Below are positions 1,307 through 27,600 of a DNA stretch of 64,000 bases, one piece after another. How positions within the stretch are numbered: position 1 is the first letter of the stretch; each line of letters starts with the position of its first letter. The translations under genes were made by a program, and so were the position numbers. Under the pieces are notes generated by a model. That model was given only the letters and a program-made list of their open reading frames with translations, was not told the origin of the DNA and ran no database searches. This stretch comes from Larus michahellis (Eukaryota; Chordata; Aves; Charadriiformes; Laridae): assembly GCF_964199755.1 (NCBI RefSeq), contig NC_133896.1, forward strand, positions 176,131,092 to 176,195,091. Reading direction: 5' to 3'.

Positions 1307-1600
1307 CTGTAAGGCACCGGCCACCGCCGCTGCGGCGAACGGAGCCCCCCGGAGAAACGTGGCCCCCAAACCACCGCCGCCGCCGCCAGCAGCAGGAGCA
1401 GCCCGTAGTGGCGGGCGGCACCCATGGCGACGGGGCTGCGAGCCGGGCCTGGGTGCTGCGGGCGGGCGGGCGGGCGGGGAAAGTGGCGGGGCTGAGGGAG
1501 GCCGGGCCGAAAGGAGGCCGCGCCCGCCCACAGGGCCCCGGCCGGCCGGAGAGGGGTGAGGCGGGGAGGGCGGCACCGTGCCACACGCAGAGGCCTGGCC
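1160..1600. promoter_or_regulatory. CLN5: CpG island / promoter of CLN5
   Basis: A GC- and CpG-dense block surrounds the CLN5 first exon, in contrast to the AT-richer DNA on both sides. It contains a G-quadruplex-type run, (GGGC)4GGGG, at about 1460-1479 on the plus strand, some 35 bp upstream of the CLN5 start codon. I see no clear TATA box. This fits a housekeeping CpG-island promoter for a lysosomal gene. The transcription start cannot be placed from sequence alone. Confidence 0.7.
1307..1425 (-). CDS. CLN5: CLN5, first coding exon (partial gene)
   Basis: CLN5 is a lysosomal glycoprotein mutated in a neuronal ceroid lipofuscinosis; its reported activity is as a BMP synthase or depalmitoylase in the lysosome. 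The exon encodes MGAARHYG, a hydrophobic stretch LLLLLAAAAVVWG (signal peptide or anchor), then RSPQRRWPVPY. The last part matches the human RRHWPVPYK motif just before the mature domain. The exon ends TAC AG followed by the donor GTGAGT, leaving two bases of a split codon. I chose the ATG at 1425-1423 because of its strong Kozak context (GTCGCCATGG) and because the hydrophobic stretch follows directly. The frame stays open upstream to another ATG at 1629 (68 extra codons), which recalls the alternative upstream starts of human CLN5. The identity also rests on synteny with ACOD1 and KCTD12. The remaining exons are outside the window. Confidence 0.8.
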
Positions 1601-7523: not shown

Positions 7524-8235
7524 TGAATCACAGAATGGTAGGGGTTGAAAGGGACCTTTGGAGATCATCTTGTCCAACCCCCTGCGAAAGCAGCGTCACC
7601 TAGAGCAGGCTGGACAGGAAGGCATCCAGGCAGGTTTTGAGTACCCCCAGGGAAGGAGACTCCACAGCCTCCCTGGGCAGCCTGTTCCAGTGCTCTGGCA
7701 CCCTCAAAGTAAAGAAGTTTTTCCTCACGTTTAGATGGAATTTCCTGTGTTTCAGTTTGTGCCCGTTGTCCCTTGTCCTGTCGCTGGGCACCACTGGAAA
7801 GAGCCTGGCCCCATCCTCAACACCTGCCCTTTCGCTACTGATAAGCGCCAATGAGATCCCCTCTCAGTCTTCTCTTCTCCGGGCTAGAGAGCCGGGTCTC
7901 TCAGCCTTTCCTCGTAAGAGAGATGCTCCAGTCCCTTGTAGCCCTCCGATGGACTCTCTCCACCAGTTCCTTGTCTTCTTGAACTGGGGGGCCCAGAACT
8001 GGACACAGTACTCCAGATACAGCCTCACCAGGACAGAGCAGAGGGGGAGGATGACCTCCCTCAACCTGCTGGCCACAATCTCTGTAATACACCCCAGGAT
8101 GCCATTGGCTTTCTTGGCCACAAGGGCATATTGCTGCCTCATGGTCAACTTGTCTACCAGGACTCCCAGGTCCCTCTCTGCAGAGCTGCTCACCAATAGG
8201 TCAGCCCCTAACCTGTACCGGTGCAGTACAGTCAT
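7524..8235 (-). mobile_element. CR1 LINE fragment with broken reverse-transcriptase end
   Basis: The 3' end lies at the left (TGAATCACAGAATGG, then the GGGACCTTTGGAGATCATC block). Minus-strand frames at 7600-7851 and 7864-8235 translate to the C-terminal CR1 reverse-transcriptase region. Recognisable pieces are 'RLGADLLVSSSAERDLGVLVD', shortened here, and 'NWWRESIGGLQ', followed by '[17 protein letters not shown]'. The two pieces are in different frames, so the copy is dead. It is 5'-truncated; an A/C-rich simple stretch follows at 8262-8292. Confidence 0.9.
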
Positions 8236-8651
8236 TACCCCGTTATAGTCCTACGTGTAAAACAAAAAAAAACAAATCACACACACACACCACTGAGCCT
8301 TTGCAAGGTTGTACTGGAAGCAGAGCAACCTTCAAGCAAGCGACAGGCAGGCAGATGTCTAACACCACCACTGCAATGGTCATCGAGCAGCACCGTCTCT
8401 GTTACTGCTCTGCTGTGGTAAGCAGGCTGGAACAGGAATGAGACCTAAAATACAGCTGAGCCCGCTTAGCTTAAAGCTAAAGGAGCACCTAATTCCCCTC
8501 CCCCCCCGACTTCCCCCCCTACATTTTGTAGGCAGGAGGGAGAGCACCTGCTGATAAAACTGCCTGCCGTCCAGGTACAGCCCGAGCCCCCGGGCTGCTG
8601 GCTGGGAGGAGGGAGTGGGACCCCGGGCCGTACGCCCCGCCGACCCCTACG

Positions 8652-8747
8652 ATGCTGCAAGATGGAGGCCGAGGCGGAGCGCGGCGGCGCAGGCGCAGCA
8701 GGAGGAGGAGGGGGGGTGCTGTGAGGCCCGGTTTCGCGCCTGTTTGA
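8652..8747 (+). CDS. upstream ORF in the GATD3-like leader (putative)
   Basis: An ATG at 8652 opens a 31-codon frame rich in arginine (two runs of R in the middle), ending at TGA 8745-8747. It lies upstream of, and out of frame with, the main start at 8782. A second ATG at 8662 opens an overlapping 20-codon frame that ends at TGA 8722-8724. Whether either is in the mRNA depends on the start site. If transcription starts at the YY1-like motif, the 8652 ATG may be excluded. Confidence 0.25.
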   Translation: MLQDGGRGGARRRRRSRRRRGGAVRPGFAPV

Positions 8748-8781
8748 GCAGCCTCTGCGCGGGGCCTGAGGGGCGGCGGCC

Positions 8782-8889
8782 ATGGGCAAGCGGGTGGCCC
8801 TGGTTCTCGCCGGCTGCGGCGTCTTCGATGGCAGCGAGATTCACGAGGCCTCGGCGGCGCTGGTGCACCTCAGCCGCGGCGGCGCGGAG
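8782..8889 (+). CDS. GATD3-like exon 1
   Basis: This exon has 36 codons, ending ...SRGGAE, with donor GAG|GTAGGG. The phase is 0. It carries the first beta strand of the fold ([13 protein letters not shown]). Confidence 0.9.
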
Positions 8890-11800
8890 GTAGGGGAGCG
8901 GGCGGGCGGGCGGCGGGGCCCCGCTGCCCGGCACCCCCGCGGGGCCTGTGTGGAGCCGGGCGCGGGGGGAGGTATGTGTCCCCCGTCTCTTTGCGCCCCT
9001 CAGCAGCTGAGGGATCCCCGCCCAAAGCCAGTCCAGCCATAAGCCGTCTCTATCTTATCCCTCTCTTTCTGCTTTCGCCACCCTCCCCAAAGAGGTGAAC
9101 GTTCCTCCTGACAGGAGCAGCAGTCGCTCGCAGACGGCTGAACCCGGCAGCGAGGGGTGGCGGGAGGCCTTGCCCCCTTCCTCTGTCACAGAATGACAGA
9201 ATGGCAGGGGTTGGAAGGGACCTCTGGAGATCATCTAGTGCAACCCCCCTGCCAGAGCAGGGTCACCTAGAGCAGGTTGCACAGGAACGTGTCCAGGTGG
9301 GGTTTGAATGTCTCCAGAGATGGAGACTCCACCACCTCTCTGGGCAGCCTGTTCCAGTGCTCTGTCACCCTCGAAGGAAAGAAGTTTTTCCTCACGTTTA
9401 GGTGGAATTACCTGTGTTTCAGTTTGTGCCCGTTGCCCCTTGTTCTGTTGCTGGGCACCACTGAAAAGAGTCAGGCCCCATCCTTGACATCTGCCCTTTC
9501 AATATTGATGAGATCCCCTCTCAGTCTTCTCCAGGCTGAACAGAGCCACGTCTCAGCCTTTCCTCATAAGAGAGGTGCTCCAGTCCCTTGATCATCTTCA
9601 TCCCCGCAGCCTGCTGGAGGCCCGGTTACAATTCTTGATCCGCTTTCCTATCGCTTTTGCAGAAGTCGGGCGCTCGCCCTCGCTGAGGTTCTCCTGCTTG
9701 TTTTCTGCTAGCTGTTTCTGGGCTTTTTCAGTAAGTGAGGTTTCTCGGAGAAGCCTGGACCAGGATGTGGTGGTGTGCTTTGGTCCCTCTCTGTGGCTTC
9801 AGATGGTGGAAGAGGGTGACCTTCTGCTTGGTGTAGCCGCACTCAGGTGTCTGATGGTAACAATGACACCCCCATATTTAGCACGAAGTTGTCCTCTCCA
9901 AAATTAAGAGAAGCGGCAAGCATTGAGAAGTCTGTAAAGCAAGCATCAAAACAGATGTGTGAAAACAGCCCCTGCAGTACGCCTTTCACAGAACTTCGTA
10001 TTTTTGATGCAGCTTTCCCCTTTTGTGCCTAACCAAAATAGGTTCTTGGATGTTCTGGTTTTGCTTCCTGCTACCAGTCTTTTAGGAAAGCGAGTAACGC
10101 TAATGTCTGCACAGAAAGTGCTTGTAAAGTTTGCATCTTTATCTTTTAAACTTTTTGGTAAAATTTTAGCACTCTGATCCCATAACAGTTAAGAGCAGCC
10201 TTTCTGCAGACTCAGATGTGTGTCCAGTCGAGCCACTGGTATAAATTGTGGTGCTCTGTTTGTCCTGGAGGTTATCTGCAGAGGGAAGGCAGGCCCTGGC
10301 AAAACCAGTGAGCTTAGTGTTGGTGTAAGAATGCATTCCTGTCAAAAAGCTGCAGGAATAGGATGGGGAGGATGGCTGGGTTTACTCATCCTAATATGTC
10401 ACTTGTCACTTTAGATATTTAATACAATAGATCCATCCTGTGGAATCCACTTCCCTTGGATAAGAGACTTCAGGAACAAAAACTGTTTTGATTAAATTAT
10501 CTTTATTGTGACCACTATGTGTGAGTTCTGTTTACATTCACAAAATTGCTTCATCTCCATATTCTAGGTGAAGATATTTGCCCCCAATATTGAGCAAAGG
10601 GATGTAGTCAATCACCTAAAAGGAAGTCCATCAGAAGAGAAGAGAAATGTGTTAGTTGAAAGTGCCAGATTGGCAAGAGGAAACATTCAGGATTTGACCG
10701 AACTGAAAGCTGATGAATTTGATGCGGTCATTTTCCCTGGTAAGTGCTTTTAAAAGAAAAACTGTGTTGTTTTTTTTTCAATTGCAAATAACTGCTTTGC
10801 CTCTGCTACTTTTTTATTTTTAAATCTGCTCAGAGAATACATTATATTCTTGAATTTGAGAGGTGTGTGGGTTTTTTCCTTTTTTTACTTGTTTTCTTTT
10901 GAGGATGAGAAAATGCTTTAGCAAGCTCTCACGGGCTGACAAGTCATCTCAGTTTATTTATTAATTTATAGTTCATTAATTTTCAATATCAGAGTGTTCT
11001 TTTGGTGTTAGGTCATACATCGTGCCGTTCCTTCATTCTAAAGATTGTGAAAATTTTAGTACCTACTTGCGGACAAGAACACTGACCAGAGTAGAAAAGT
11101 AAGGCAAGAACTTGACATTACATGGCAATGCCTTATTTTTAGGGCCTCTGAAATTGTTGGCAGAATAGTAGGTTTCCAAGTAGATTATATTCCCTGTCAG
11201 ATGTGAGTACATTTTGTTTTAATTGTGTATCTAGTCTGCTGCTGATTAAATTACACTAAATATGTTTACGGATAATTTCTTATTTATAGACCACAAAACT
11301 GCCTTTCAGACGGAGGTAATTGTAATCACTGTAGAAATGAAGAAACCAAAGCCTCATGAGGAAATTATGACTTGCTGAAGATCCCTTTCCAGAATATTCA
11401 TAGCACTGTTAAATACTGCCTTCACGATTTTGCTTAAGCATTGATTTTGAAGTTGTTACACTGTGTTCTGTTGTAAGGCCAGCAGAGGGAGCGTATGTAA
11501 CGCAGAGAAACATATTTTCAGCGCTAAAGTTAGTGGGTGACATCAGGACTGATCACGGAGTGGAGGCTAGCAAATATTTTCCACTTTAATTTCATGCTAT
11601 TATAACCCAGGCTCAGGGGGGTTGCTGTAATAACTATTAGAGGGAAATAAACCTTATTAAGTTTGAAAATTAAAATCTTACCTCAGAGATTCCAGATAAC
11701 ACTCGAAGTGAGCAAAGAGTGGAAGGAAAAATATTAAAAATGATCAAAGCTTCTTGATGTTGTCCCTTGAAATACTTGTGGAAATTGTTGTTTGTTTGTT

Positions 11801-14368
11801 GCAGAAAAGTTGATGTTCTGCACATTCCATAAGGAATCAAATATAATGGATGGTTACACTTACTAATAACCTTCTTACTTGGATCATTCTGATGGTTATA
11901 AATCCATCAAATGAAGATGCTGTAAAACATAATCTACATGTGCAATTAAATGAAGATTAAGTGCAAGTAAAAGATTGTTGTAACTAATTTCTAGAACTCA
12001 AATTTGGCATTATTTTTAATAGGAAATTGTTTTATCACTGGTGGGTTATCATTGGTATGTCTCAGTATCATGTTATCATTGCCTTTTTACGTAATATCCG
12101 TTTTGGTTTTATTGTGTTACCCTTCTCTTCTTTTTTAAGTTGAAAATAATTCCGGGGGGAAAAAAGCTCTCCTGTAATTGCTTAAGTTTTGAAGTAAAAC
12201 TTGAGAGTGAATTACTGTAGAGGGTCAATTCACTGTTTGCATTACTCTCGTGAATTACACTTTTCTACTTTTAACTATCATTGGTCTTTCTTCTCATCCC
12301 TCTCTTGCTTATGGAGGGGTGCATATCAGATGGTGCAGCTTTTCTGGTGACTGGCAAATGAATGTGAGGTTTCCTATTTGTGTATTTGTTGCTCACTGAA
12401 GCTTTCTGGCCTATGTAACATGCGTGCTATAAAAAATGTGCAATTAAACTTTTAACAGTGTAAACCCATCATGTTTCATGTTCTGGAGGCTTTCAGTATA
12501 CTAACTTAACAGTCCTACATATGCCATGATTATGTTGTAAACAAAGGACAACTTTCTGGTATTGAATTTAATGGCTTTTAGCAGTGTCTTACATTTGAGC
12601 TTTTTGGTTTGGTTTTTTTCTTTAGGTGGTTTTGGTGTAGCAAAGAACCTGTGTTCCTGGGCTGTAGATGGCAAGAACTGTACTGTCAATGAGCATGTGA
12701 ACTCCACACTCCAAGCTTTCCACAGTGCTAAAAAGCCCATCGGTTTGTGCTGTATATCGCCAGTCCTGGCCGCTAAAGTGTTTCCTGGTTGTGAGGTCAC
12801 CGTCGGCCAAGATAAAAACGTAGATGGAAGGTAAGAAGGAAACGGGTGGAGGTAATTTACACGGGAATTAGGATTAGGAAATGGCCAGTCTTCTGTGAAA
12901 AAGTCTGAGGTCTGTGGTGCCAGTAAACCTTGGGTAACTTATTAGTGACGTTTTTCACGTATTTCAAATTTTTACTTGCATAATAATAGTAGGAGCAGAA
13001 CTCTCAGGGCAGGTGGACTGACAGTGTGAGATGAGGTGACTTGTTGCACACTACAACATTGGAACCATTTGTCCCTAAATTCAGAAATACTTTGGTCTGT
13101 GATATGTTCTATGATATCAATGTCCACAGATGCATTATGATTAATAGCCTGAAAATTCTAGGTAGCCTTATCTCTTGCCTAAGCCGTCAGTGTGAGCCAC
13201 TGAAGGTAACATAGGCTCCTGCAGTGGCTTTACTGTGCTTTGTGGATGCTATTGAGTCACTGGATGTAACATCTGTCAGTCCTAGAAAGTGACAGAACAA
13301 AGAGACTTTTACAGAATCTGACCTCTGCAAACACGCACAGTATTTTTTTTTCACATTACATTCATGGTAATTGAGTGATAGATTTTAGCTCACTTAATAA
13401 GTGGGAGACAGAACTTGCTTACCCAATGCGTTTGAAGGCTGTGATTCATGTTGCAAATGTGCAAATGAAGAACAGGCATCTGGCTAGCTGGTGTTCAAAA
13501 AATTTGGTACCCTGTGGTAATTTGAGTGGCTGTTTAAATTGCATCTGTGGGGTTTTGTCTGTTCAGAGATTTTGTTTTTTTTAATAAAGTTTTTGTGGCA
13601 GTAGTGGTTTGGGGCCAGTTTAGGGGAGGCAGATGAGAACAGGGCCTGACAGAAGTCAGTGCTGCTTCAAGGACTGTCAGCTCCCGATAAAACTTCTGAA
13701 TGGAATTTCGTATCAGCAGCAGTAGCAAGGGATTGCCTCCACTCCCCTCTTCCTGCCTTATCCTCGGGGAAAAAAAAAATAATCTCTGCAGAATCCCAGT
13801 GGAAAACGTTATATGGAGGTGTTAGGAAAGGTCTAATGTGACTGCAAATTCAGTTGGCATCTCCAACACTCTTAAAGATCAGTTATGGTTGCACTTGGTA
13901 TCATCTTGTGTACGTGTTGAAAGGTTGTTAAAAAGAGAATTGTATCTTCTGACGTATTGTGGCTCTACGTTTCAGGTGGTGTTTTCAAAGAAATCAGATC
14001 ACTTCTTGTGTCCATAGGGGATGGCAGAACCACAGGGGCAGTCTGTTTGACTCCCTTGTCATCATCTGCGAAAGAGTCACTTAAATATTATTGCAGTTCC
14101 CTCACTCGAGTTATGTTGGCAGGACTTTATGACTGTATCATCTCTTTATGTTAATTACAATCTTTTTATTTACAGATTTCCTGATGCTGAAACAGCATCT
14201 GCTATAGCAGAGCTTGGATGTAAGCACATTTGCAAGAATGTAAATGAATCCCACGTGGATAAAGCCAATAAAATAGTTACTACCTGTGCTTTCATGTGCA
14301 AGGCTCCTCTGCATGAGATTTTTGATGGAATTGGAACAATGGTACAGGAAGTCCTCAAACTTGCCTGA
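8782..14368 (+). CDS. GATD3/ES1-like glutamine amidotransferase-like protein, no mitochondrial presequence
   Basis: The complete gene is join(8782..8889, 10568..10739, 12626..12830, 14176..14368), 678 nt and 225 aa, with GT-AG introns in phases 0, 1 and 2. The protein follows mature human GATD3 (ES1, C21orf33) end to end: [20 protein letters not shown], then [37 protein letters not shown] and [16 protein letters not shown]. The family has a DJ-1/PfpI-like class I amidotransferase fold; GLCC (about residues 131-134) sits at the nucleophile elbow. The start at 8782 has a good Kozak context (GGCGGCCATGG), and an in-frame TGA at 8767-8769 rules out a contiguous N-terminal extension. The human protein has about 41 extra N-terminal residues for mitochondrial import. 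This product is therefore predicted to be cytosolic unless an upstream alternative exon exists. It is divergent enough from the human protein to be a paralogue. Its precise reaction is unknown. Confidence 0.9.
8890..10567 (+). other. GATD3-like intron 1
   Basis: The intron starts GTAGGG and ends TATTCTAG. It contains a GC-rich G-run near the donor and a minus-oriented CR1 copy at about 9185-9620. I see no further exon in it. Confidence 0.85.
9185..9620 (-). mobile_element. CR1 LINE fragment in GATD3-like intron 1
   Basis: The plus strand starts GTCACAGAATGACAGAATGG and continues GGGTTGGAAGGGACCTCTGG, the reverse complement of the CR1 3' end. It carries the usual 'CACCTCTCTGGGCAGCCTG' block and is antisense to the host gene. 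The 5' end is truncated near the 'GATCATCTTCATCCCCGCAG' segment. Confidence 0.9.
10568..10739 (+). CDS. GATD3-like exon 2
   Basis: The acceptor is TTCTAG|GTGAAG and the donor CCTG|GTAAGT. It encodes [17 protein letters not shown], continuing to ...DEFDAVIFP plus one base. It aligns with human VQIFAPDVPQMHVIDHTKG. Confidence 0.9.
10740..12625 (+). other. GATD3-like intron 2
   Basis: This is an AT-rich intron ending TTTTTTTCTTTAG. A CTCF-like motif lies at 11479-11492. I see no repeat or exon I can name. Confidence 0.8.
11479..11492 (+). promoter_or_regulatory. candidate CTCF site
   Basis: CCAGCAGAGGGAGC matches CCASYAGRKGGCRS at 13 of 14 positions. It lies in intron 2 of the GATD3-like gene. 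This is a motif match only. Confidence 0.4.
12626..12830 (+). CDS. GATD3-like exon 3
   Basis: The acceptor is CTTTAG|GTGGTT and the donor GAAG|GTAAGA. It encodes [18 protein letters not shown], continuing to the GLCC nucleophile-elbow region and [11 protein letters not shown]. It ends with two bases of an Arg codon. Confidence 0.9.
12831..14175 (+). other. GATD3-like intron 3
   Basis: The intron starts GTAAGA and ends TTTATTTACAG. It has T-rich patches near 13343 and 13565. No exon or nameable repeat was seen. Confidence 0.8.
14176..14368 (+). CDS. GATD3-like exon 4 (terminal)
   Basis: The acceptor is TTTACAG|ATTTCC. It encodes (R)[17 protein letters not shown], continuing to [16 protein letters not shown] and stop TGA at 14366-14368. 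Human GATD3 ends in GIGAMVRKVLELTGK, so the C-terminus is intact and only slightly shorter. Confidence 0.9.
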
Positions 14369-14437
14369 CTGGAAGCGTACAGACTTCTGCAAGGAAATCA
14401 AATTAGCTAAACATAAGCATTTAGCTTCGATTGTATT

Positions 14438-14443
14438 AATAAA
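14438..14443 (+). terminator. poly(A) signal of the GATD3-like gene
   Basis: AATAAA lies 70 bp after the stop codon and is followed by T- and GT-rich sequence (TTGGTTTGGTTGTTTGGG near 14473). This gives a very short 3' UTR. Confidence 0.7.
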
Positions 14444-16132
14444 ATAATGCAACTATTAAACTTCACAGTTCTTGGTTTGGTTGTTTGGGTTTTCTTAAAA
14501 ATCTGTAATCCATCAAATGGTTATTGCTAAGTTTATCCTATTTATTTCTCTTTAAAAATAGAAAGCATGTGTTGAAGGTTGTGGTGGTGGTTTTCCTCAT
14601 TTTTTTTTTTCTCATTAATCTGAATATATTCAGTCTTGATAAGATAATGTAGGAACCCTCCTTGTCCAGTGGGATTTTATCGCATCACTAGTGATTATCA
14701 GTAATTCACATTTGGTGTTATCCAGCTATAATTACAGATGAAATAGCTGTAAATGAGTCTGTAGACCTTCAGTACAGGTGAGTAATTCAATTCCACTTTC
14801 TAATCAGAAGGGAAAAAGAAAAGAATGTGGTTATTTGGGTTTGTTTTTTTTTCTTCCCTTGCAAGTCTTTAAGCGAGTATAACTAATGGACTTCTGAAAT
14901 TTTTGCAGAGCCCCCTGATAAACTGACTTTATAAACCAAGAGGCAGAGGCTTAAGTACAAATGAATACATTGTATGTGGAAAACATGCGAGTTTTGCTCT
15001 AATAAATGAAATAATTTGAGGTTTAGTTAGTAAAATGAATTAACTTTATTTTGTGATTTTTTTTTTTATACATATTTTAGTGCTCTCAGGAAGGTACATT
15101 TTATATATGTTAGAATATGTGCTTTAATCTTACAAACATGAGCAAAGGTCATCAGCCTCTGTTAGAAGCACAATCTGGCAAGGCTTTGTACTCCTGAAGG
15201 AACTAAAAATTCCCAGAATTCATTATCAAGGCAAGTTGATTGTCACTGTGGACACTTAATTGTCTTGGTGTAAGAAGTGGTCTGATGCTCGCAGGTGTCT
15301 CTGTCATGAGTGTACCATAGCCCATGCTTTGTAGTGCCTGAAATAATCTAAACGTGTCATCGCTAATTAGCGCTAATCGTGCCTTGTGGAGCAAGTGCTT
15401 TGTTACTGGAGTGGGAATACAGGAACAAACCCGTACCACCGGGCAGCCAAAAGATGGAAGTGGGAAATAGCACTTCTAGGAGGAGGAGTGTCGAGTTGTC
15501 CCTCTTGCTTTGCAGCTGGCATCATCGGGAAGGTCACCAACGTTTACCTTGTCAATGCAAGACCAGTCGTTACAGCGAAGCCGGACGCGTTGCAGACGAT
15601 ACCCAGTGCTACTACTCTGTATGTACGCTGCGTTTATTTTAGCACCAACGTCAAAGCTCTGACGTAGCAGGTGGCTTCTCCAAGGAGGCTTTAGAGCTAA
15701 ATCTACTGAAATAAATATATAAAGGCTGCTATCCTCTGTCCTTCTCGCAGTGATGTTTCTCACGGTGACTGCGTTTCCACACTCCTCCAGAACTTGGATT
15801 CCCTTTATGGAGTTATTTAAGAGAAGCAGAACAGACCTTTTTTTTGGCAGAAGAGCAGGGAAATGTTTGTGTGTTGCGCAAGCAGTGCTCTGCCTCTAGA
15901 GGTATAAAGATAATTGAAGTCGACTGTGCCAGCAGAGGATCTTCCGTTCAGCCTGACTGAGCTGCCCACGTAATCGCTAAATTATTTACTTAGGCAAAAA
16001 CCACAGTATTGGACTGAGCATGGCTCTTGTGTTACAGGAGTCCAATTTAAAAGTCCTTGAGTCACTAAATGGGAGTTTGTCCTGAATTTTGTGCTTGCTT
16101 TGTGAACAGTGTCTAGCTGTCGGTTGGAACAG
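14444..16132. other. convergent intergenic region between the GATD3-like gene and ACOD1
   Basis: The two genes face each other tail to tail. On the minus strand, TTTATT (AATAAA in sense) at 15633-15638, about 0.5 kb beyond the ACOD1 stop, is the nearest good poly(A) signal; another lies at 15045-15050. Part of this stretch is therefore ACOD1 3' UTR. The short plus-strand frames at 15379-15667 have no family resemblance. Confidence 0.6.
15633..15638 (-). terminator. ACOD1: candidate ACOD1 poly(A) signal
   Basis: TTTATT on the plus strand reads AATAAA on the gene strand, about 495 bp past the stop codon. An alternative lies at 15045-15050. Confidence 0.4.
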
Positions 16133-17087
16133 TCAAAGGAAGTGCAGCTTCTCCGAAAGCGCTCTCACTGACTGTCCTGATAAAAACTTAGTTAATACAG
16201 AACAGTCCTCCACTTTTTCCAGATTGTACACAGTGTCTATAATGCCTTCTGCAGCTTCTGCGGGCAGGACGCTGGAGGCGTTGGATTGAAACTTTTTCTC
16301 CAAGTCCTCCTTTTTCAGAGGTTTCCTCCAGTGTCCGTAGAATGTGTCGCAGCGGTCGCTGACCGTGTTGCCATCCTGAAGCGTGACGCTCACTTCGCAG
16401 TAAAGGCTCTCAAAGCTGGGCGTGTTGTCAGGAGGGTGCTCCAGCTGCGTTTTGCAGAGGAGCTCCCGTAAGGCTGGCCGGTGAACGTTCTCGCTGGTGA
16501 AGGACTGGACCAACATGCTGCCATCCAGCAAAGCAGAGCACGCAACAAACTGGAAGGAGTGTCGAGCTTCATGCTCTGAGGCAGGGCTGGGTCTGTTCAC
16601 GTATTTGACCTCTGGGACTTTGAGAATGACTTTCTCAATTTTATCAAGGGGGAGCAAGTTGCCACTGTTCTCCACAAGCTTCCTCCTAACAGAAGATGCT
16701 GCATCGGCCACCCAGTGCGTTCCAAGATGGGCAGGAAAGCGTTTGATGGCCACGTCTTGCTGGTCCAACAGCCAGGGGTAGGACTGCAAGGTTGGCAGAG
16801 TCTGTGGGTTGTAATCTGTATAAAAGGCACCTATCCCTGACTCCATGTCCAAGATCTGTTTGTTTCCTTGAAGGCCCTGGGATGCTAAGCATGCTGCTTC
16901 CAGTCCATGCTTGGCAGCGTTGCCAACATGGAGGGGCTTCGTTTGGGTTGCCGCGTTAGCCAGTGGGGCACCGGCATAGGAGGCAGCAATAGCCAAGGCG
17001 TTTTTACATTTTGGCTGGTCAAGAGCTAAGAGTTTAGCACAAGCTGCTGCACTCCCCATCGTACCAACCACAGTCGGGGGGTGAAAC
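16133..17087 (-). CDS. ACOD1: ACOD1 terminal coding exon (exon 5)
   Basis: The acceptor on the minus strand is TTTTCTCAG|GTTTCAC. It encodes (R)FHPPTVVGTMGSAAA through to the stop at 16133-16135. It carries His159, Lys207, Lys272, His277 and Tyr319, and the conserved DTFYGHWRKPL segment near the C-terminus. Confidence 0.95.
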
Positions 17088-20000
17088 CTGAGAAAACAAA
17101 ATCTCATCATTACTATATTTCAAAAAGTCACCTGAATATACGCTATATACACAAGCTCCAATTTCCTCTCACTGCCGCAGAAGACGGATCGTACCATAAA
17201 GAAACACACATTGAGAGTTCATGGGAGGTCCTAATGGAAAAAGTTGTTGCTTTTCCCTAGGAACAAGTTAAGCTGGAACAGTACCACTATAATAGGTCTT
17301 ATATATAGATCTTCCCCAGAAAGAAACTGAAACATTAGAACCACTCATAGTTCAAGCCATTCTGAACAGGATAATGGCAAAAGCGTTACAGTTTATAGTC
17401 ATCTATAAATTTACTGTAAATAATTTATAGCCGTCTATAAATTATACATATTGGGGGAGGCAAGTTTTGTTATTATGCACCAGTTTAGCAAAACAGGTGG
17501 AAGGGAGGCACAGAAAAGAGCAAGAAGACATCTAGTCCATCCCACACTTCAAGGCTTCCCCCTAAGCACACCTCGTCTTCTTGGGCTCCGCTCTGAGCCC
17601 AGCCCCGGTGGCTCCGTTCTGCTGAGAGCAAGCCACTGTTTAAAATGATCGTACGTACTCACGAGAGCCTCAGACCTGTGCCACAAAATGTTGCCCTTTT
17701 GCTGCTGTTTTTAATTAATAGGGAGAGCATCATGTCCTTTCTGTAACCTGATCAATGCTCTCAAAAATAAATCTGTTAGCTAAACTGTAAGGAATCACAT
17801 AAGCGTATTTATGTTTAAGGTGAACCTTTCCGAAATTTCCAGACAAACAACACAGAATATATGATTAACTGTGCCATTTGTATTTTAACTGGCATTTAAT
17901 TAAGTATATTAACACTGAGAGAAAACGCCTTCCACTCAACTTTCTACCTGAAGCATTTCTATGTACCTTTTGGGAATATTCCTGGCTTCGCTGGAGAAGC
18001 GCAGCAGCCGGCCTTGCACTTCGATTCCCACATTGAAAGCTAAGAGCAGATCGAGACCCGAGATTTTTTTCTCCTGAGGAAAGGCCTCCGCGAGTGCAAT
18101 CACGGCAGGGAGCACGGCCCCGGATGGGTGCGTGGCTGGATGCCACGTGTCGTCAAAATCCATCGAGTGCACCTAATGGAAAGAGAAGTCTAGTCATCAG
18201 AAATAAACTCTGACTTGGCAAGACTGGCTCAGTCAAATTAAACTACTATAACTGGTATAAAACAGGCCTGAAGAACTAGATTTTTCCTTAGAAGGCAAAA
18301 CTTCAAAAGCCTTTCTTTTAAACCTCTTTACTCCCAACATGGCTCCGTGAGAAGTGGCAATGCAATACAAATCTTGCCTCCAAAGAAGTATAAGTCTAAT
18401 TCAAGTTGCACCAGTCTAAAACCGGTATAACGATGATTCTTCTTTCCTACAATAGGCTTTTGTTGCTTTAGTTAGACTGGTGTAATTAAAGCAGCAGCTC
18501 TAGGTCCACCATGTGAATGGTGTATTTTCACTTACCCCAAAACAGTACATAAACACAGTGAAATTACTTCTCCAGTGCTGCAACTGATGCTGCCATTGGG
18601 GCTCGCACCATTAAAGCCATAGCAGTTGAATCCATGCCGCTAATTCAAAGTTCTATCAGAAAAACTTCTCTGGTGCAACAATCCACAGGCAACAGGCACA
18701 AGCCTCTAAATGCAGATCAGATTTTAGCCTGAATTTTCAGCACGTCGAAACCAAGGCGTGGTTTCGCAACCACCAAGTCTACGCAAGGAACCAGACTCCC
18801 TAGGGTTGCTGTAGTAGAAAGCTACAGTCTTAAAATTGGGATATGCTGCTTAGCCCTGGAGAGGATCCAGAGAGGTGCCTCCTCTTTACCATGCCCAGAC
18901 CCCTGACTGCTTGTCAGAACCTCTCCCCCCACCAAGTTTTGAGAACCCCCAATGACTTGAAAGCATCAGGGACAGCATTTTTAATAACATAATAATGCCT
19001 CAAAAGCTCAACTTCTGTGCCTAGTCGCCCATGTCTTACTTCAGAGCAAACTGGGAAGGTGCTCAGGTTTCCCAGCACTCAGGTCTTGCCCTGTGATACT
19101 AGGAATACGCACTTCTGAGGATTGCGTTTCTGAACAGACACAAGAAAACCCAGTCCCTGCCTTGAAAAACTGTGACACCAGCTGGGAAGATGCCCTGCAG
19201 TGCAGGTTAAGGACAGTTACGCCCAATACCCGGTAAGCTGCGTTCCTGCCGTCTTCAATAAGCGCTTAGAACTGACCTGTGACTGAGATGTAAACTGGAA
19301 TGATCGCCTTCATGCTAACAGCCAGATTTGAATGTCACGCCGGCTGCTGGGAGCTGAGAGGTACCAGATCTCATTTCCAAGGTAATTTTCTCTACATTGG
19401 AAATGAGGTGTCAAATTGGACCTCTGATCTTGTTGTCACTCTAATTTAGATAGGCTTAATATTACCATTTCCTTGGTTGGTCACCTCCTCTAGTTTTGCA
19501 TAATTGCCAAATTTGTCTACCCCACCTCTTGTGCATCTTTCGATTTCAAACGGTTTCCGCCTCAATCTGAATTTAGACATATGTCTGGGAGTCAGTTATT
19601 GCTTTAATGATGAAGTATGTGTCCAAAATATATAATGGGCTTTTGCAAACTGCGTAACTGAAGCTTGAATTGCCTTGTGATATTGTATCATAGGATCATA
19701 GAATGGTTAGAGTTGGAAAGGACCTTAAAGATCACCTACTCCCAACCCCTCTGCCATGGCCATGGACACTTTCCACTAGACCAGGTGGTGTGTACGTATA
19801 TGTGTGTCTGTCTGTATTTGTGTTTTTCTGTAACTATACTTTTCCAGTTGGCATGAAATTTGGATCCCGGTGAAATCAGTGAGAGCTAGAGTACTCAGTA
19901 GAGAGCTCTTTGTAATGCGGCTGTACCAAGGTTGTAACAAGCTGTAGAGTTCTGGCTTTTGAAAACAGCCCCAAATCCTACGTTAAAGGTAAGGGATGCT

Positions 20001-23333: not shown

Positions 23334-24439
23334 GGAGAGAAGAGGTCATCAGGTGCATCAGGCTGACCTTGGAGAACCACAGTAGACCATAGAGAACTCT
23401 ACTGGTTGGAAGAGCAATCAGCCCAGTAGTAGACTACAGGATGGCAAAGGCTGTTTTAACCTGGTTTTGGTTTGTTTTGGTTTTTTCTCCTTTCACTATA
23501 TGTCTCCTCTATAATACATACAATTCATACATGGGTAGTGTGTGCCATAAGAATTTCAGACCATAAATTGGATTAAGGTAGCTCTTGTCATTTAATAGTA
23601 TTTTAACAGCATGAATCGTTACGTGAGGCCATCATTTCTACTAGAACATCTGCATCTCAGGCAAAGATGTCTTCTCTGAGGAAGGAGGCACTTCTCCCAC
23701 CACTGGTTTAGGGATTTCGCTTCTGTGGGAATCCCAGACAGCGAGTGAGAAATCTCTGCCCATCCCATCAGGAAGGGAGCAGACCCCAGAGAAGCATAAG
23801 TAGAGGCCACTGAATAATTCTGAAGTGAAAAAGTAACGTGTGTCTGAAGTATGGGAATCTCCTCAATTAGGGAACAAAGTATCAAGTCTTCTCAGAATTG
23901 TAGTCTTGCACTGCCCTGCTTAAGAGCTGCCTAAAACTTTAGGAACCTCAGCCCTTTACTCAGCCTAGCCTCAAATAATTTTGTGAAGCCCTATCTAACT
24001 CCTGAGTGCTTCCGGGTAGAGCCCAGCATGGGTTTATAGGTGAAGTGAAACATTGATTTGAGTGGCTCTACTACTGAAAGGTCCTGTTTCAGGCTACATC
24101 CTCTCACTGCTCCTGTCCCCTGGACACATAGTCCTCCTCCTCCTCACGCCAGCAATGATGCTGAGCAGACCCCTTTCTGAGCTGGTCCAGCCTGCCTCCA
24201 GAGCCAGCTCAGGGATTCTTAGCAGTCAGGCGAAACTGAGTTTCATTGCCTCAGAAATGCAAAATTAAATCTAGCAGCACAAGCAGAGGGAGAGAGAAGT
24301 AGTGCTAGCAGTGTTCTGCGAAATTTTGGGAGGACACAGGCAGGTAGAAAGAGATGGGAGGGGATCAGCTGCTCCCCAGTAAGCTCTAACCCAGGCATTT
24401 GCCTATTTTGCCTGTGCCTTGAGCCACCTGTGTGGACAT
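23334..24439. promoter_or_regulatory. upstream region of ACOD1 with kappaB-like and IRF-like motifs
   Basis: Two near-kappaB decamers, GGGATTTCGC (23711-23720) and GGGAATCCCA (23727-23736), each match GGGRNWYYCC at 9 of 10 positions. They lie about 380-400 bp upstream of the proposed start codon. An IRF/PU.1-type stretch AGTGAAAGGAGAAAA on the minus strand lies at about 23483-23497. I cannot place a TATA box or start site with confidence. Confidence 0.3.
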
Positions 24440-24639
24440 NNNNNNNNNNNNNNNNNNNNNNNNNNNNNNNNNNNNNNNNNNNNNNNNNNNNNNNNNNNNN
24501 NNNNNNNNNNNNNNNNNNNNNNNNNNNNNNNNNNNNNNNNNNNNNNNNNNNNNNNNNNNNNNNNNNNNNNNNNNNNNNNNNNNNNNNNNNNNNNNNNNNN
24601 NNNNNNNNNNNNNNNNNNNNNNNNNNNNNNNNNNNNNNN
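24440..24639. other. assembly gap (200 N)
   Basis: Exactly 200 N are present. The round length suggests a placeholder rather than a measured size. It lies about 1.1 kb upstream of the proposed ACOD1 start codon, and any reading frame across it is meaningless. Confidence 1.
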
Positions 24640-27600
24640 TTTTCCCCCCAAACACTTCGAAACACCTGCTACAGGAAAGAAGTGCAGAGGTCCAGCTGCC
24701 TTTACTCCCCTGTCGAGACCCCAAAGTGAACTGGAGCCAGAACTTGTGATGTTCCTCGCAACGTGATGTGCGGTCACATGCTGCTAGCTGATCTCAGATG
24801 CGCGGTCGCTTCCTTCTGTAACCTCGCTGGCAGGATGGATTGTCCCATGCATTGCAATAGCAGCGTCAGTACTATTTAAGGACTGAACTGAGGTATTATA
24901 AGAAAGTGACTTTTTTTTTTTTGTTTAAAAAAAAAAAAAATGAAGTGAAACTGTAAGTGTTCAAATTGTTTGGGAGACGAATTTCCAAAATGTGGTCTGC
25001 AGACTTCAGAGTCAGGTGTACGCTGTGAGGGAAAAGAAAGCAATATGATTATCACTGCAGGGGGAAGAGGCATCTACACAGGAGAACTCGTAGGGGTCTA
25101 AACAGAAGAACATTGAAAATCAGTGACTGAGAGTTTGGCACAAACTGTCCACCCTGACAAAGGGAATATGCTGCTTTCCTCTTCTTTGACACAATACGCA
25201 TGGCTCAGCAATTTGGGCAGACAATTTGCTAACTAGTGAGCGCGATGGAGAGACAAAATGTGTTCATCCAAATGCCATTTGCAACATCGTGCACAGCTCC
25301 AGTAATGAGCTGTGTTGATTAAAGAACAGGGCTTTAGAAAACCAGTGCCCCACAGAGTCTATTTTCTCCTGCTGACATCACATTTTTAAGCTGCCTTTTT
25401 TCTTTCTTTTGCCTCCAATTATTTTAGGCTAAACTCTGCCCACACCTGCAAGCTGTATGTTTGCCACTGAAAGCAGTTTTGCCCTTGGCATTATGCTCTT
25501 TTTGTTCTAAAGAAATGTAAAAAAAAATAAAATATGACAAACTATGGAGGCCAGGCTCCCTCTTCTCTAAGCCAGTTTTTAAGATGTAACTTTGTGCCTG
25601 GGCTGCGCTAAAATGAGAAAACGAAAACGGGAGGCAGGTGCCAATTCTCTCTGTTTATAGAGCCTCTGCTATCGCTGGGGGTCCAGAACCACCTTAGAAG
25701 TGCAGGACCTGCTCCTTTTCCTTCTACTGGGATATTTTAAGTACAAAAAAGAGGTGAGAATCTTAGCGAATGGTCTGGAATAGGTGGCTTGATCTAAATC
25801 CTCTTAACAGCCCGACAGCCGTAAATCCTGGGATCCTGTAATTCTGCACCACTACCATTATAGTCCCCTGTGCCTCTTTTTCCCCAAGCCTACCTTCCCC
25901 TGTTCATTCCAATGGCAGTTACTGAGCCAGCCAGCAATAATACACAGCAAAAGCAACTGCACCGTGAAACGTATAATTCTGGAAATTTCTAGCCTGTAGT
26001 AGTTCTCTTACTCACTGACTTGCACAACTAGCGACAATGGCAGTGCAATCTCTGAGAAGTTACACCACCCTTGTTTCCTTTTCTCAAAGTCCTCACAGCA
26101 TATCTTGGAAGTGCCAGGCCATATTCTGGTAAAGGTTGCTACAAGTCAATGCTCCAGGTCTACATTACACTGTCCTTCTTGCCTTCATAAATTAGCCATG
26201 CTATTCCTAAAGGCAAGTCCTCGCAGTCGATTTTAAACTTGTAACGTAGATGCTGGTTTGCTTACGCGAGCTGTAAGATAGAGGTACCAGACATGACTGG
26301 GACAGTCATGTGTTCAAGATAGTCAAGTGTTCAAGGCCAGGCTGGATGAGGCTTTGAGCAGCCTGGTCTAGTGGGAGGTGTCCCTGCCCATGGCAGGGGG
26401 GGTGGAACTAGGGGATCTTTAAGGTCCCTTCCAACCCAAACCATTCTATGATTCTATGATAATTGTGTAGGTTCTTGTTCAAGACAGATTGATCATTTCA
26501 GTATAGACATATTGTGAACAGGGCTCAAGATGCTCCACTAGCAGTAAAAACATGTTTGAAGCCAGAGAGTGTGTCGCTGAATGATCAGGTAAGCCCCTTC
26601 GACATCGTTTATGGAGTAGCACGAAGGGGCCTGAACTATAACAACGTGAGAAGACACCACAGTTCCATGAAATTCCTGTTCACCCCAGTGTAAATTTTAG
26701 GTGCCACCCAAACTATAGCCTTTACCTGTAATAGAAGTGCCAGCATTCAGATGCTGACAGCGCGAGGGGCTACACCATACTCAGCTGCCTTGGATTCACA
26801 GCTCAGAAGGAGGAGGCGTAGGAGAAGGTGACACAGCCAGCTCCAGACCCCTGTGAACCACACTTCTATACCCTGGGGTACCACCGCGTCTCCCTGGGAT
26901 GCCTCACAGCCACGTTCCCAAAGCTTTTCTTCATCCCTCTGTAGCTTTCCACCCTATTTTCTAAAGAAATAAGGTTACCTGGACTAGTAGCAGGTGGCTG
27001 TAGGGTTTCTATATGGCATGACCTCCAGTACGCAGGTGTAGGAGATCACGTAGGTTTTCTGTGCCTGCATAGACTTTGCCGTAACTTCTCCTTGTTGATG
27101 GTTTCGGCAGCGTGTAGCACACATCGCTTTTCTAATCAGAGGGCAGTCTTGATGCCTATATTAAGCAGTCAAAATGCAGCCAGATGTCATTACAGGACTT
27201 TTGCCCTTTGGGGAGATGCTGGAACTCGACTAGCATAAATTCAGGGTTTGATTAGCAGAAACCAACAAATTAGCGTGAGCGCATGTGAGGGATGTGGCAA
27301 TTTTAATTAAATTACCAGCAGAACTCTGGTGGTGCAAAGGAGGCGTTAGTTGCTGTGCTGGGTTCCTGCATCATACGCGGAAAGGTACCCAGCAAAGAGA
27401 CTCTCTTTATCGTTTCAGAGCGAGCCCAGATGTCAGGCTGCCACACGTCCCAGCCGGCCTGCAGTGGCGGTGCAGTAGGGAGATGCAGACATCAACATCT
27501 AGTATACGAAAAGCTTCACTGTTAATTAAGTGGTAAAAGAGCCTCTCTGCATCTAAGCTATTACTCGGGGATTTTGAGCCCCTAGGAAGTTATCCCAGGC

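What the first reader, a model, noticed from the sequence alone, without database searches (positions are those of the whole stretch)
8782..14368. GATD3/ES1-like gene between CLN5 and ACOD1 without a mitochondrial presequence
A complete four-exon gene encodes a protein matching mature human GATD3 along its whole length but starting directly at the core fold ([13 protein letters not shown]). An in-frame TGA at 8767-8769 excludes a contiguous longer N-terminus. In human, GATD3 is on chromosome 21 and carries a presequence of about 41 residues; it is not next to CLN5 or ACOD1. This suggests a second, cytosolic GATD3-type paralogue kept in this lineage, or a relocated gene that lost its targeting signal.
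Basis: partly seen in the sequence, partly recalled or inferred. Interest (0 to 1): 0.75.

Follow-up and report, generated by a model that had tools for sequence, protein, structure and literature searches.

The report
Presequence-free GATD3 paralogue beside ACOD1
This bird gene is an intact, old vertebrate sister of the mitochondrial enzyme gene GATD3 that starts straight at the enzyme core; three such genes were found in this genome, and the two without a mitochondrial address both sit close to a copy of the immune gene ACOD1.

Summary
The gene is real: four GT-AG exons at the stated coordinates, 225 aa, in-frame TGA 15 nt upstream. It is not a relocated GATD3. The same genome keeps mitochondrial GATD3 ("M", 7 exons, presequence) 49.5 Mb away and a third gene ("S") on C13 with the same 4-exon plan as the window gene ("L"). 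Trees give three supported vertebrate clades, L and S sisters. L is listed from ray-finned fishes to birds, marsupials and platypus; no placental name is visible. So it is not bird-specific, and core start is its common state: one fish clade seems to have gained a presequence (43 of 45 rows) while keeping the internal Met. Unexpected: the two ACOD1-type genes found lie 1.8 kb from L and about 43 kb from S. Chicken "ES1", induced over 100-fold by Salmonella, is most likely S, not L. L is probably a cytosolic ElbB/GATD3-type carbonyl-repair enzyme, linked by descent and perhaps function to the itaconate locus. Activity, localisation and induction of L are untested.

The parts
8782..8889 (+). Exon 1 of the GATD3-like gene L (codes MGKRV...GGAE; catalytic Glu22)
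   Evidence: GT donor, Kozak-like GCCATGG
10568..10739 (+). Exon 2
12626..12830 (+). Exon 3 (nucleophile elbow Cys135-Cys136)
14176..14368 (+). Exon 4 with stop codon
8767..8769 (+). In-frame TGA upstream of the start
8601..9000 (.). CpG-rich promoter and exon 1 region (GC 0.76-0.78, CpG o/e 0.78-0.98)
14438..14443 (+). AATAAA poly(A) signal 70 nt after the stop
   Evidence: read by eye
16649..16837 (+). Possible alternative terminal exon, antisense to ACOD1; the chicken model P0003 departs from L after DGIGTM, where this window has ATG|GTACAG, and continues in sequence matching this stretch; acceptor AG at 16647-16648 is present
   Evidence: one database model only
1307..1425 (-). CLN5 exon 1, coding part (neighbour, head to head; exon 2 lies just outside the window)
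   Evidence: CLN5 recognised from recalled sequence, no family search run on it
16133..17089 (-). ACOD1 (IRG1) terminal coding exon (neighbour, tail to tail)

Best explanation
L is an ancient vertebrate paralogue of GATD3, one of three types: M mitochondrial, L and S starting at the core. It makes a 225-residue ElbB/DJ-1-superfamily enzyme without a targeting sequence, so it should stay in the cytosol (inferred). There it most likely does what GATD3A does in the matrix: a Cys/Glu active site reverses early glyoxal/methylglyoxal adducts (inferred from family and residues). L and S descend from one core-start gene that already lay near an ACOD1-type gene; the block was duplicated early in vertebrate history (inferred from tree and linkage). 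The CpG-rich promoter suggests broad basal expression of L, with possible co-induction through the ACOD1 domain (inferred).
For: Gene structure. NCBIfam ElbB equivalog 272.9 bits against cut-off 180. ElbB crystal structures are the nearest by sequence (6.8e-54) and by fold (1vhq TM 0.90; model of the 96%-identical magpie goose protein P0001, pLDDT 87.9). Active-site Glu22, Cys135 and Cys136 are the same in all 34 L rows and all 35 M rows aligned. Human GATD3A is reported as a matrix deglycase with E62/C176 as predicted active site (PMC8935817, abstract and passages). Three loci found in the own genome; L and S share three intron positions and phases, none of them among M's six. Trees: L|M 100/100; L+S 98/92, L 99/96, S 99/97, M 100/99, all vertebrate rows against 20 bacterial rows 100/98. 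The two ACOD1-type genes found lie near L and near S. In mouse macrophages Irg1, Cln5 and Fbxl3 are co-regulated in one TAD (PMC6341744, passages).
Against: No localisation, activity or expression data for L were seen. Forty-four usable L models carry presequence-like extensions: 43 in one fish clade and one frog, so L is not core-only everywhere; one pheasant model (P0102) is also extended and one Muscovy duck model (P0017) is open upstream. Database names say 'mitochondrial', apparently by transfer. On C13 the ACOD1-type gene lies on the other side of S (head to head), about 43 kb away, with other ORFs between, so the pairing may be only a remnant of a duplicated block. No other vertebrate genome could be checked for the pairing. 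No KCTD12 or FBXL3 match was found in 98.5 kb around S. Deglycase activity of DJ-1 is called 'previously disputed' in PMC8935817 itself.
Confidence: 0.7

Rival explanations
1. L is itself an immune-induced effector co-regulated with ACOD1, with a specific role in the itaconate response rather than housekeeping carbonyl repair.
For: Both core-start genes lie near the two ACOD1-type genes found. The sister gene S is most likely the chicken ES1 induced up to 139-fold in caecum (PMC3663788, passages), and zebrafish si:ch211-153b23.5 is listed with irg1l in Shigella RNA-seq, as a hub of one co-expression module and in two toxicology data sets. Mouse TAD with Irg1, Cln5 and Fbxl3 co-regulated.
Against: The induced chicken ES1 fits S better than L: reverse primer S 22/22, L 19/22; forward primer S 18/21, L 17/21. 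L has a CpG-rich start region while S has TATAAA at -80. No data on L induction were seen.
Confidence: 0.22
2. The gene is the plain orthologue of mitochondrial GATD3, moved and stripped of its presequence.
For: About 65% identity over the whole core; databases call it GATD3, mitochondrial.
Against: M is intact in the same genome at C1:126659633-126665505 with presequence; L|M 100/100; no shared intron position.
Confidence: 0.01
3. L carries a hidden presequence through an unannotated upstream exon, so the product is mitochondrial after all.
For: An AG at 8769-8770 could bypass the TGA; 43 fish models, the frog Ascaphus and a pheasant model carry N-terminal extensions.
Against: 56 of 120 listed L rows start at the core (45 have 16-60 residues before it, 2 others fewer or more, 17 lack the motif); the bird first exons seen replace exon 1 and so delete Glu22; poor acceptor tract; a Met at the core start is kept in all 44 usable extended L rows and in 0 of 97 usable M rows.
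Confidence: 0.06

Closest known systems
Mitochondrial GATD3 / GATD3A / HES1 (M; human chr 21)
   Same: Same ElbB-type core, about 65% identical; Glu and Cys-Cys of the active site kept
   Different: M has a presequence, 7 exons including an AT-AC intron (own genome), another locus, and forms its own clade
S gene: zebrafish-derived name si:ch211-153b23.5; most likely chicken LOC422305 (infection-induced ES1)
   Same: Sister clade, core start, 4 exons with identical intron positions and phases, near an ACOD1-type gene
   Different: Other chromosome (C13), 66% identical, TATA promoter, reported induction by Salmonella in chicken
Database entries for L: rows named Zgc:162944 (P0081, P0116); chicken 'GATD3A-like1' (P0003)
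   Same: This gene's own orthologues
   Different: Automatic annotation, many labelled mitochondrial; no study of L was seen in the listings
Bacterial ElbB (E. coli 1oy1/1vhq)
   Same: Fold TM 0.90, 44% identity (P0001 model), core start
   Different: Single Cys at the elbow (M-C for C-C)
DJ-1/PARK7
   Same: Superfamily fold; Cys/Glu active site as described in PMC8935817
   Different: About 16% identity, TM about 0.53; Pfam DJ-1_PfpI just under its cut-off

Membership tests
ElbB/GATD3/ES1 family | Score above NCBIfam NF008747 (ElbB) cut-off | tested here: met
   272.9 against 180 bits
ElbB/GATD3/ES1 family | ElbB fold | tested here: met
   Model of the 96%-identical P0001: TM 0.90 to 1vhq/1oy1
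ElbB/GATD3/ES1 family | Active-site Glu and nucleophile Cys | tested here: met
   Glu22, Cys135, Cys136
ElbB/GATD3/ES1 family | Glutaminase/deglycase activity | not testable with these tools
   Needs recombinant protein
Mitochondrial GATD3 (M) | N-terminal presequence | tested here: not met
   Starts at the core; in-frame TGA. A spliced upstream exon is not excluded
Mitochondrial GATD3 (M) | Placement in the M clade | tested here: not met
Mitochondrial GATD3 (M) | M exon structure | tested here: not met
   0 of L's 3 introns coincide with M's 6 in this genome
S (Salmonella-induced ES1) | Match to published ES1 primers (PMC5065701) and S clade | tested here: not met
DJ-1/PARK7 | Pfam DJ-1_PfpI above gathering score | tested here: inconclusive
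   25.5 against 26.6 bits; a whole-genome search with this family found only a C20 gene that I read as PARK7
L clade (zgc:162944 / GATD3A-like1) | Monophyly with named L rows | tested here: met
   99/96, 95/96
L clade (zgc:162944 / GATD3A-like1) | Place next to CLN5/ACOD1 in other species | tested here: inconclusive
   No other vertebrate DNA at hand; FBXL3 fusion models in Lagopus and Monodelphis, and the ACOD1-antisense end of chicken P0003, imply the neighbourhood

The most novel reading that the evidence does not exclude
ACOD1 and a presequence-free ElbB-type enzyme are an ancient vertebrate gene pair: both core-start copies stay near the two ACOD1-type genes because the enzyme serves the itaconate or inflammatory response (for instance clearing carbonyl or itaconate-derived damage in the cytosol), and placental mammals have lost both enzyme copies while keeping ACOD1.
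Probability: 0.25. Interest if true: 0.8.

Novelty: new member of a known kind. Interest (0 to 1): 0.48.

Why it matters
Databases give rows of all three vertebrate types the name 'GATD3, mitochondrial', so studies can mix them up: the Salmonella-induced chicken 'ES1' is most likely S, not GATD3 and not L. If L and S are cytosolic, birds, reptiles, fishes and monotremes have an extra layer of ElbB-type carbonyl defence that placental mammals, the usual models, seem to lack. The paired closeness to ACOD1 is directly testable and would tie this enzyme family to itaconate immunometabolism. The fish clade that seems to have gained a presequence while keeping the internal start is a natural test of dual targeting.

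Tried and rejected
Rejected: (a) that the window gene is the Salmonella-induced chicken ES1. This looked attractive because its neighbour ACOD1/IRG1 is induced in the same experiments, but PMC4256799 puts ES1 on chicken chromosome 4 (LOC422305), and the primers printed in PMC5065701 fit S better. Control: a shuffled forward primer reached 17/21 at best (mean 15.1, 200 shuffles) in the 98.5 kb around S, so L's 17/21 is no better than chance by score, and the weight lies on the reverse primer (S 22/22). The IRG1 primers fit the window's ACOD1 (18/20 and 19/20) better than the best places in the C13 stretch (16/20 and 15/20). (b) Relocated M. (c) Bird-specific copy. (d) Presequence loss: the common state in L is core start.

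Led nowhere: Rfam, 0 matches at gathering score. An ACOD1-type gene was first sought in only 68.5 kb around S and not found; it lay just outside. A KCTD12 search for a wider duplicated block did not complete; locally, no KCTD12 or FBXL3 match lies in 98.5 kb around S. The first tree used one E. coli ElbB row as root and warned of a long branch; it was replaced.

Full report
OBSERVATION. The reading is exact. The gene has four exons (8782-8889, 10568-10739, 12626-12830, 14176-14368), GT-AG introns of phase 0, 1 and 2, 225 aa, and an in-frame TGA at 8767-8769. It is an ElbB-type protein: NCBIfam ElbB 272.9 bits against a cut-off of 180; E. coli ElbB is the closest solved structure by sequence (6.8e-54). 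A model of the 96%-identical magpie goose protein P0001 superposes on ElbB 1vhq at TM 0.90. P0001 was used because it is a database protein; the window's own spliced protein was not folded.

NEIGHBOURHOOD. The order is FBXL3(+), CLN5(-), L(+), ACOD1(-), KCTD12(+). FBXL3 exons and CLN5 exon 2 were found in 30 kb fetched upstream; CLN5 exon 1 is at 1307-1425 (CLN5 recognised from recalled sequence). The ACOD1 exon is MmgE/PrpD by Pfam, and KCTD12 has BTB and KCTD8/12/16 H1 domains. The L and ACOD1 coding ends are 1.8 kb apart, tail to tail.

NOT A BIRD ORPHAN. A protein search listed the 120 best of 7,826 relatives: birds, turtles, squamates, marsupials (Sminthopsis, Monodelphis), platypus, frogs, salamanders and ray-finned fishes, at 72-97% identity. 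No placental name is visible, but several names are cut off or absent and only 120 rows are shown, so placental loss is an inference. A second search with human GATD3 listed the M type. Both types are named from one species in Nipponia nippon (P0036 L, P0207 M), Hoplias (P0045, P0201) and Lampris (P0112, P0223); Pleurodeles has all three (P0049 L, P0235 M, P0284 S). Some tree labels are mine: P0015 is called Anolis because its contig length equals that of the Anolis row P0200; labels such as P34fish, Danio and mars233 stand for names cut off in the listing.

THREE GENES IN THIS GENOME. A six-frame search of the window's own assembly (1.4 Gb, 616 contigs) with L, at E up to 1, gave 14 exon matches in three places: L itself; C13:50098858-50102976, here S; and C1:126659633-126665505, here M, 49.5 Mb from L. 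M has seven exons and the presequence MLASRGPALCTALRRATPGGLASFHCSAGRRRPA. S has four exons and starts MGKRVAVVL. Pairwise identity: L-S 66%, L-M 65%, S-M 68%; so by raw identity S is not closer to L than to M, and the sister relation rests on the trees and on gene structure. L and S share all three intron positions and phases; none of the six M introns falls at those places. A gene that I read as PARK7 lies on C20.

TREES. With 41 rows, L and M are two sides of one branch, 100/100, each holding fishes and land vertebrates. A third search, with S as query, listed 120 rows, 116 of them new and four already listed as L: sharks and rays, coelacanth, lungfish, amphibians, reptiles, birds, platypus and ray-finned fishes; four rows named Si:ch211-153b23.5 are here, rows named Zgc:162944 are in the L list. 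Only 18 of the 116 were put in a tree. With 52 rows: S 95/98, L 95/96, M 100/99. With 20 of 80 fetched bacterial rows as outgroup, all vertebrate rows form one group (100/98) and L+S another (98/92). As S holds cartilaginous fishes, the L/S split should predate jawed vertebrates; no L from sharks was visible. No invertebrates were sampled. Rows per tree were chosen by hand for spread.

PRESEQUENCE HISTORY. Of 120 L rows, 56 start at the core, 45 have 16-60 residues before the core motif, 1 has 5-15, 1 has more than 60, and 17 lack the motif. Of 120 M rows none starts at the core (102 with 16-60, 3 longer, 15 without the motif). Of the 116 new rows of the S search 87 start at the core by the motif, 7 begin further upstream, and of 22 that the motif missed 17 start there by eye. 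The usable extended L rows (44) average 3.4 K+R and 0.23 D+E over about 31 residues, in the manner of M (5.2 and 0.10 over 40), but all 44 keep a Met at the core start, against 0 of 97 usable M rows. On a quick tree of 100 L rows (20 dropped for missing motif or length), 43 of 44 extended rows fall in one fish clade of 45 (SH-aLRT 88); the two exceptions there are an unnamed row (P0099) and Channa striata (P0073), whose sister Channa argus is extended, so the latter is probably a model error; the last extended row is the frog Ascaphus. The tree needs four changes of state in all. So the L presequence was most likely gained in that fish clade, by its species a percomorph group (taxonomy recalled), and the retained Met predicts dual targeting there. 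TargetP-type predictors were not available.

THE ACOD1 LINK. Searching the genome with the window's ACOD1 exon (E up to 0.01) gave two places: the window, and C13:50055076-50056011 (57% identity, E 1e-107), 42.8 kb from S (the match holds one TGA, at the C-terminal end of a 332-residue open frame). No match lay near M. Between the C13 ACOD1-type gene and S lie two ORFs with GPR1/FUN34/YaaH similarity, one above the Pfam cut-off (30.3 against 25) and one below (16.9). Two unrelated genes each landing that close to one of two ACOD1-type genes in 1.4 Gb is very unlikely by chance (of the order of 1e-4 for each gene, my estimate); a duplicated ancestral block explains it (inference). The order differs: tail to tail on C1, head to head on C13. 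In zebrafish, si:ch211-153b23.5 is listed with irg1l in a figure legend of Shigella RNA-seq (PMC6980646), as a hub with irg1l in one co-expression module (PMC11140123) and in two toxicology data sets (PMC8877790, PMC9228135; passages). No paper of the held library contains ACOD1, GATD3 and itaconate together.

WHICH GENE IS 'ES1'? In chicken caecum infected with Salmonella Enteritidis ES1 rises up to 139-fold (PMC3663788, passages), and PMC4256799 assigns it to LOC422305 on chromosome 4 (passages). The primers of PMC5065701 (passages) fit S (reverse 22/22, forward 18/21) better than L (19/22, 17/21) or M (14/22, 15/21) (the species here is unnamed and need not be chicken). S has TATAAA at -80; L has a CpG-rich start region. 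So induction is reported for what is most likely S, not for L. The zebrafish cone protein ES1 (PMC4772128, passages) was not assigned to a clade here.

MECHANISM. Human GATD3A is reported as a matrix protein that hydrolyses glutamine and lowers glyoxal/methylglyoxal adducts; loss of it is associated with accumulated AGEs in mice (PMC8935817, abstract and passages). L keeps Glu22 (human E62) and both elbow cysteines (C176, C177) in all 34 L rows aligned. I infer a cytosolic enzyme of the same chemistry. Shown here: gene, family, clade, absence of a contiguous presequence, linkage. Inferred: cytosolic location, activity, co-regulation, block duplication, placental loss.

VERDICT.

Noticed in passing
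C13:50055076-50102976 of the own genome (L108, L109, L106, L104, L103, L019): An ACOD1-type gene, two GPR1/FUN34/YaaH-like ORFs (50066507-50068075 +; 50091212-50093155 -, the latter under the Pfam cut-off) and S lie within 48 kb; the YaaH-like proteins could be carboxylate carriers of an itaconate cluster (speculation).
   Followed up: partly
C1:176106587-176109242 (FBXL3, in L004) to window exon 2 (10568): Gene models in Lagopus (P0042) and Monodelphis (P0090) fuse FBXL3 ...FMDLPK to L exon 2 VKIFAPN at the same junction, skipping antisense CLN5; GT follows MDLPK in this genome and L exon 2 starts in phase 0. A possible conserved read-through F-box/ElbB chimera.
   Followed up: partly
window 14330-16837: Chicken model P0003 ends L with sequence antisense to the ACOD1 terminal exon (89% identical to window 16649-16837); GT and AG are present at the matching places, so a natural antisense transcript to ACOD1 is possible.
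   Followed up: partly
L020, intron 6 of M (C1:126664765-126665377): The intron begins ATATCCTTT and ends TTCCTTAACTCCCTTTCAC, i.e. a U12-type AT-AC intron (consensus recalled). Models that seem to miss it read KEVTISFPAHVD (P0204, P0208) or KEVIISFVDQ (P0121).
   Followed up: partly
window residues Cys135-Cys136 (human C176-C177): The single elbow Cys of E. coli ElbB aligns with the second Cys (human C177), while the published mutant is C176A, which kept some activity; the true nucleophile may be C177.
   Followed up: no
chicken literature: PMC13266104 names a chicken gene GATD3AL2 as a hub in a caecal host-bacteria network (passage); by its number it may be S, as P0003 (L) is called GATD3A-like1. 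Not checked.
   Followed up: no
window about 7540-8230 and 9190-9600: Interspersed repeats that look like CR1 LINE tails flank exon 1 (recognised by eye, not searched).
   Followed up: no
window about 24400-24770: A run of N (200 N in the window; rough place from the ORF list).
   Followed up: no
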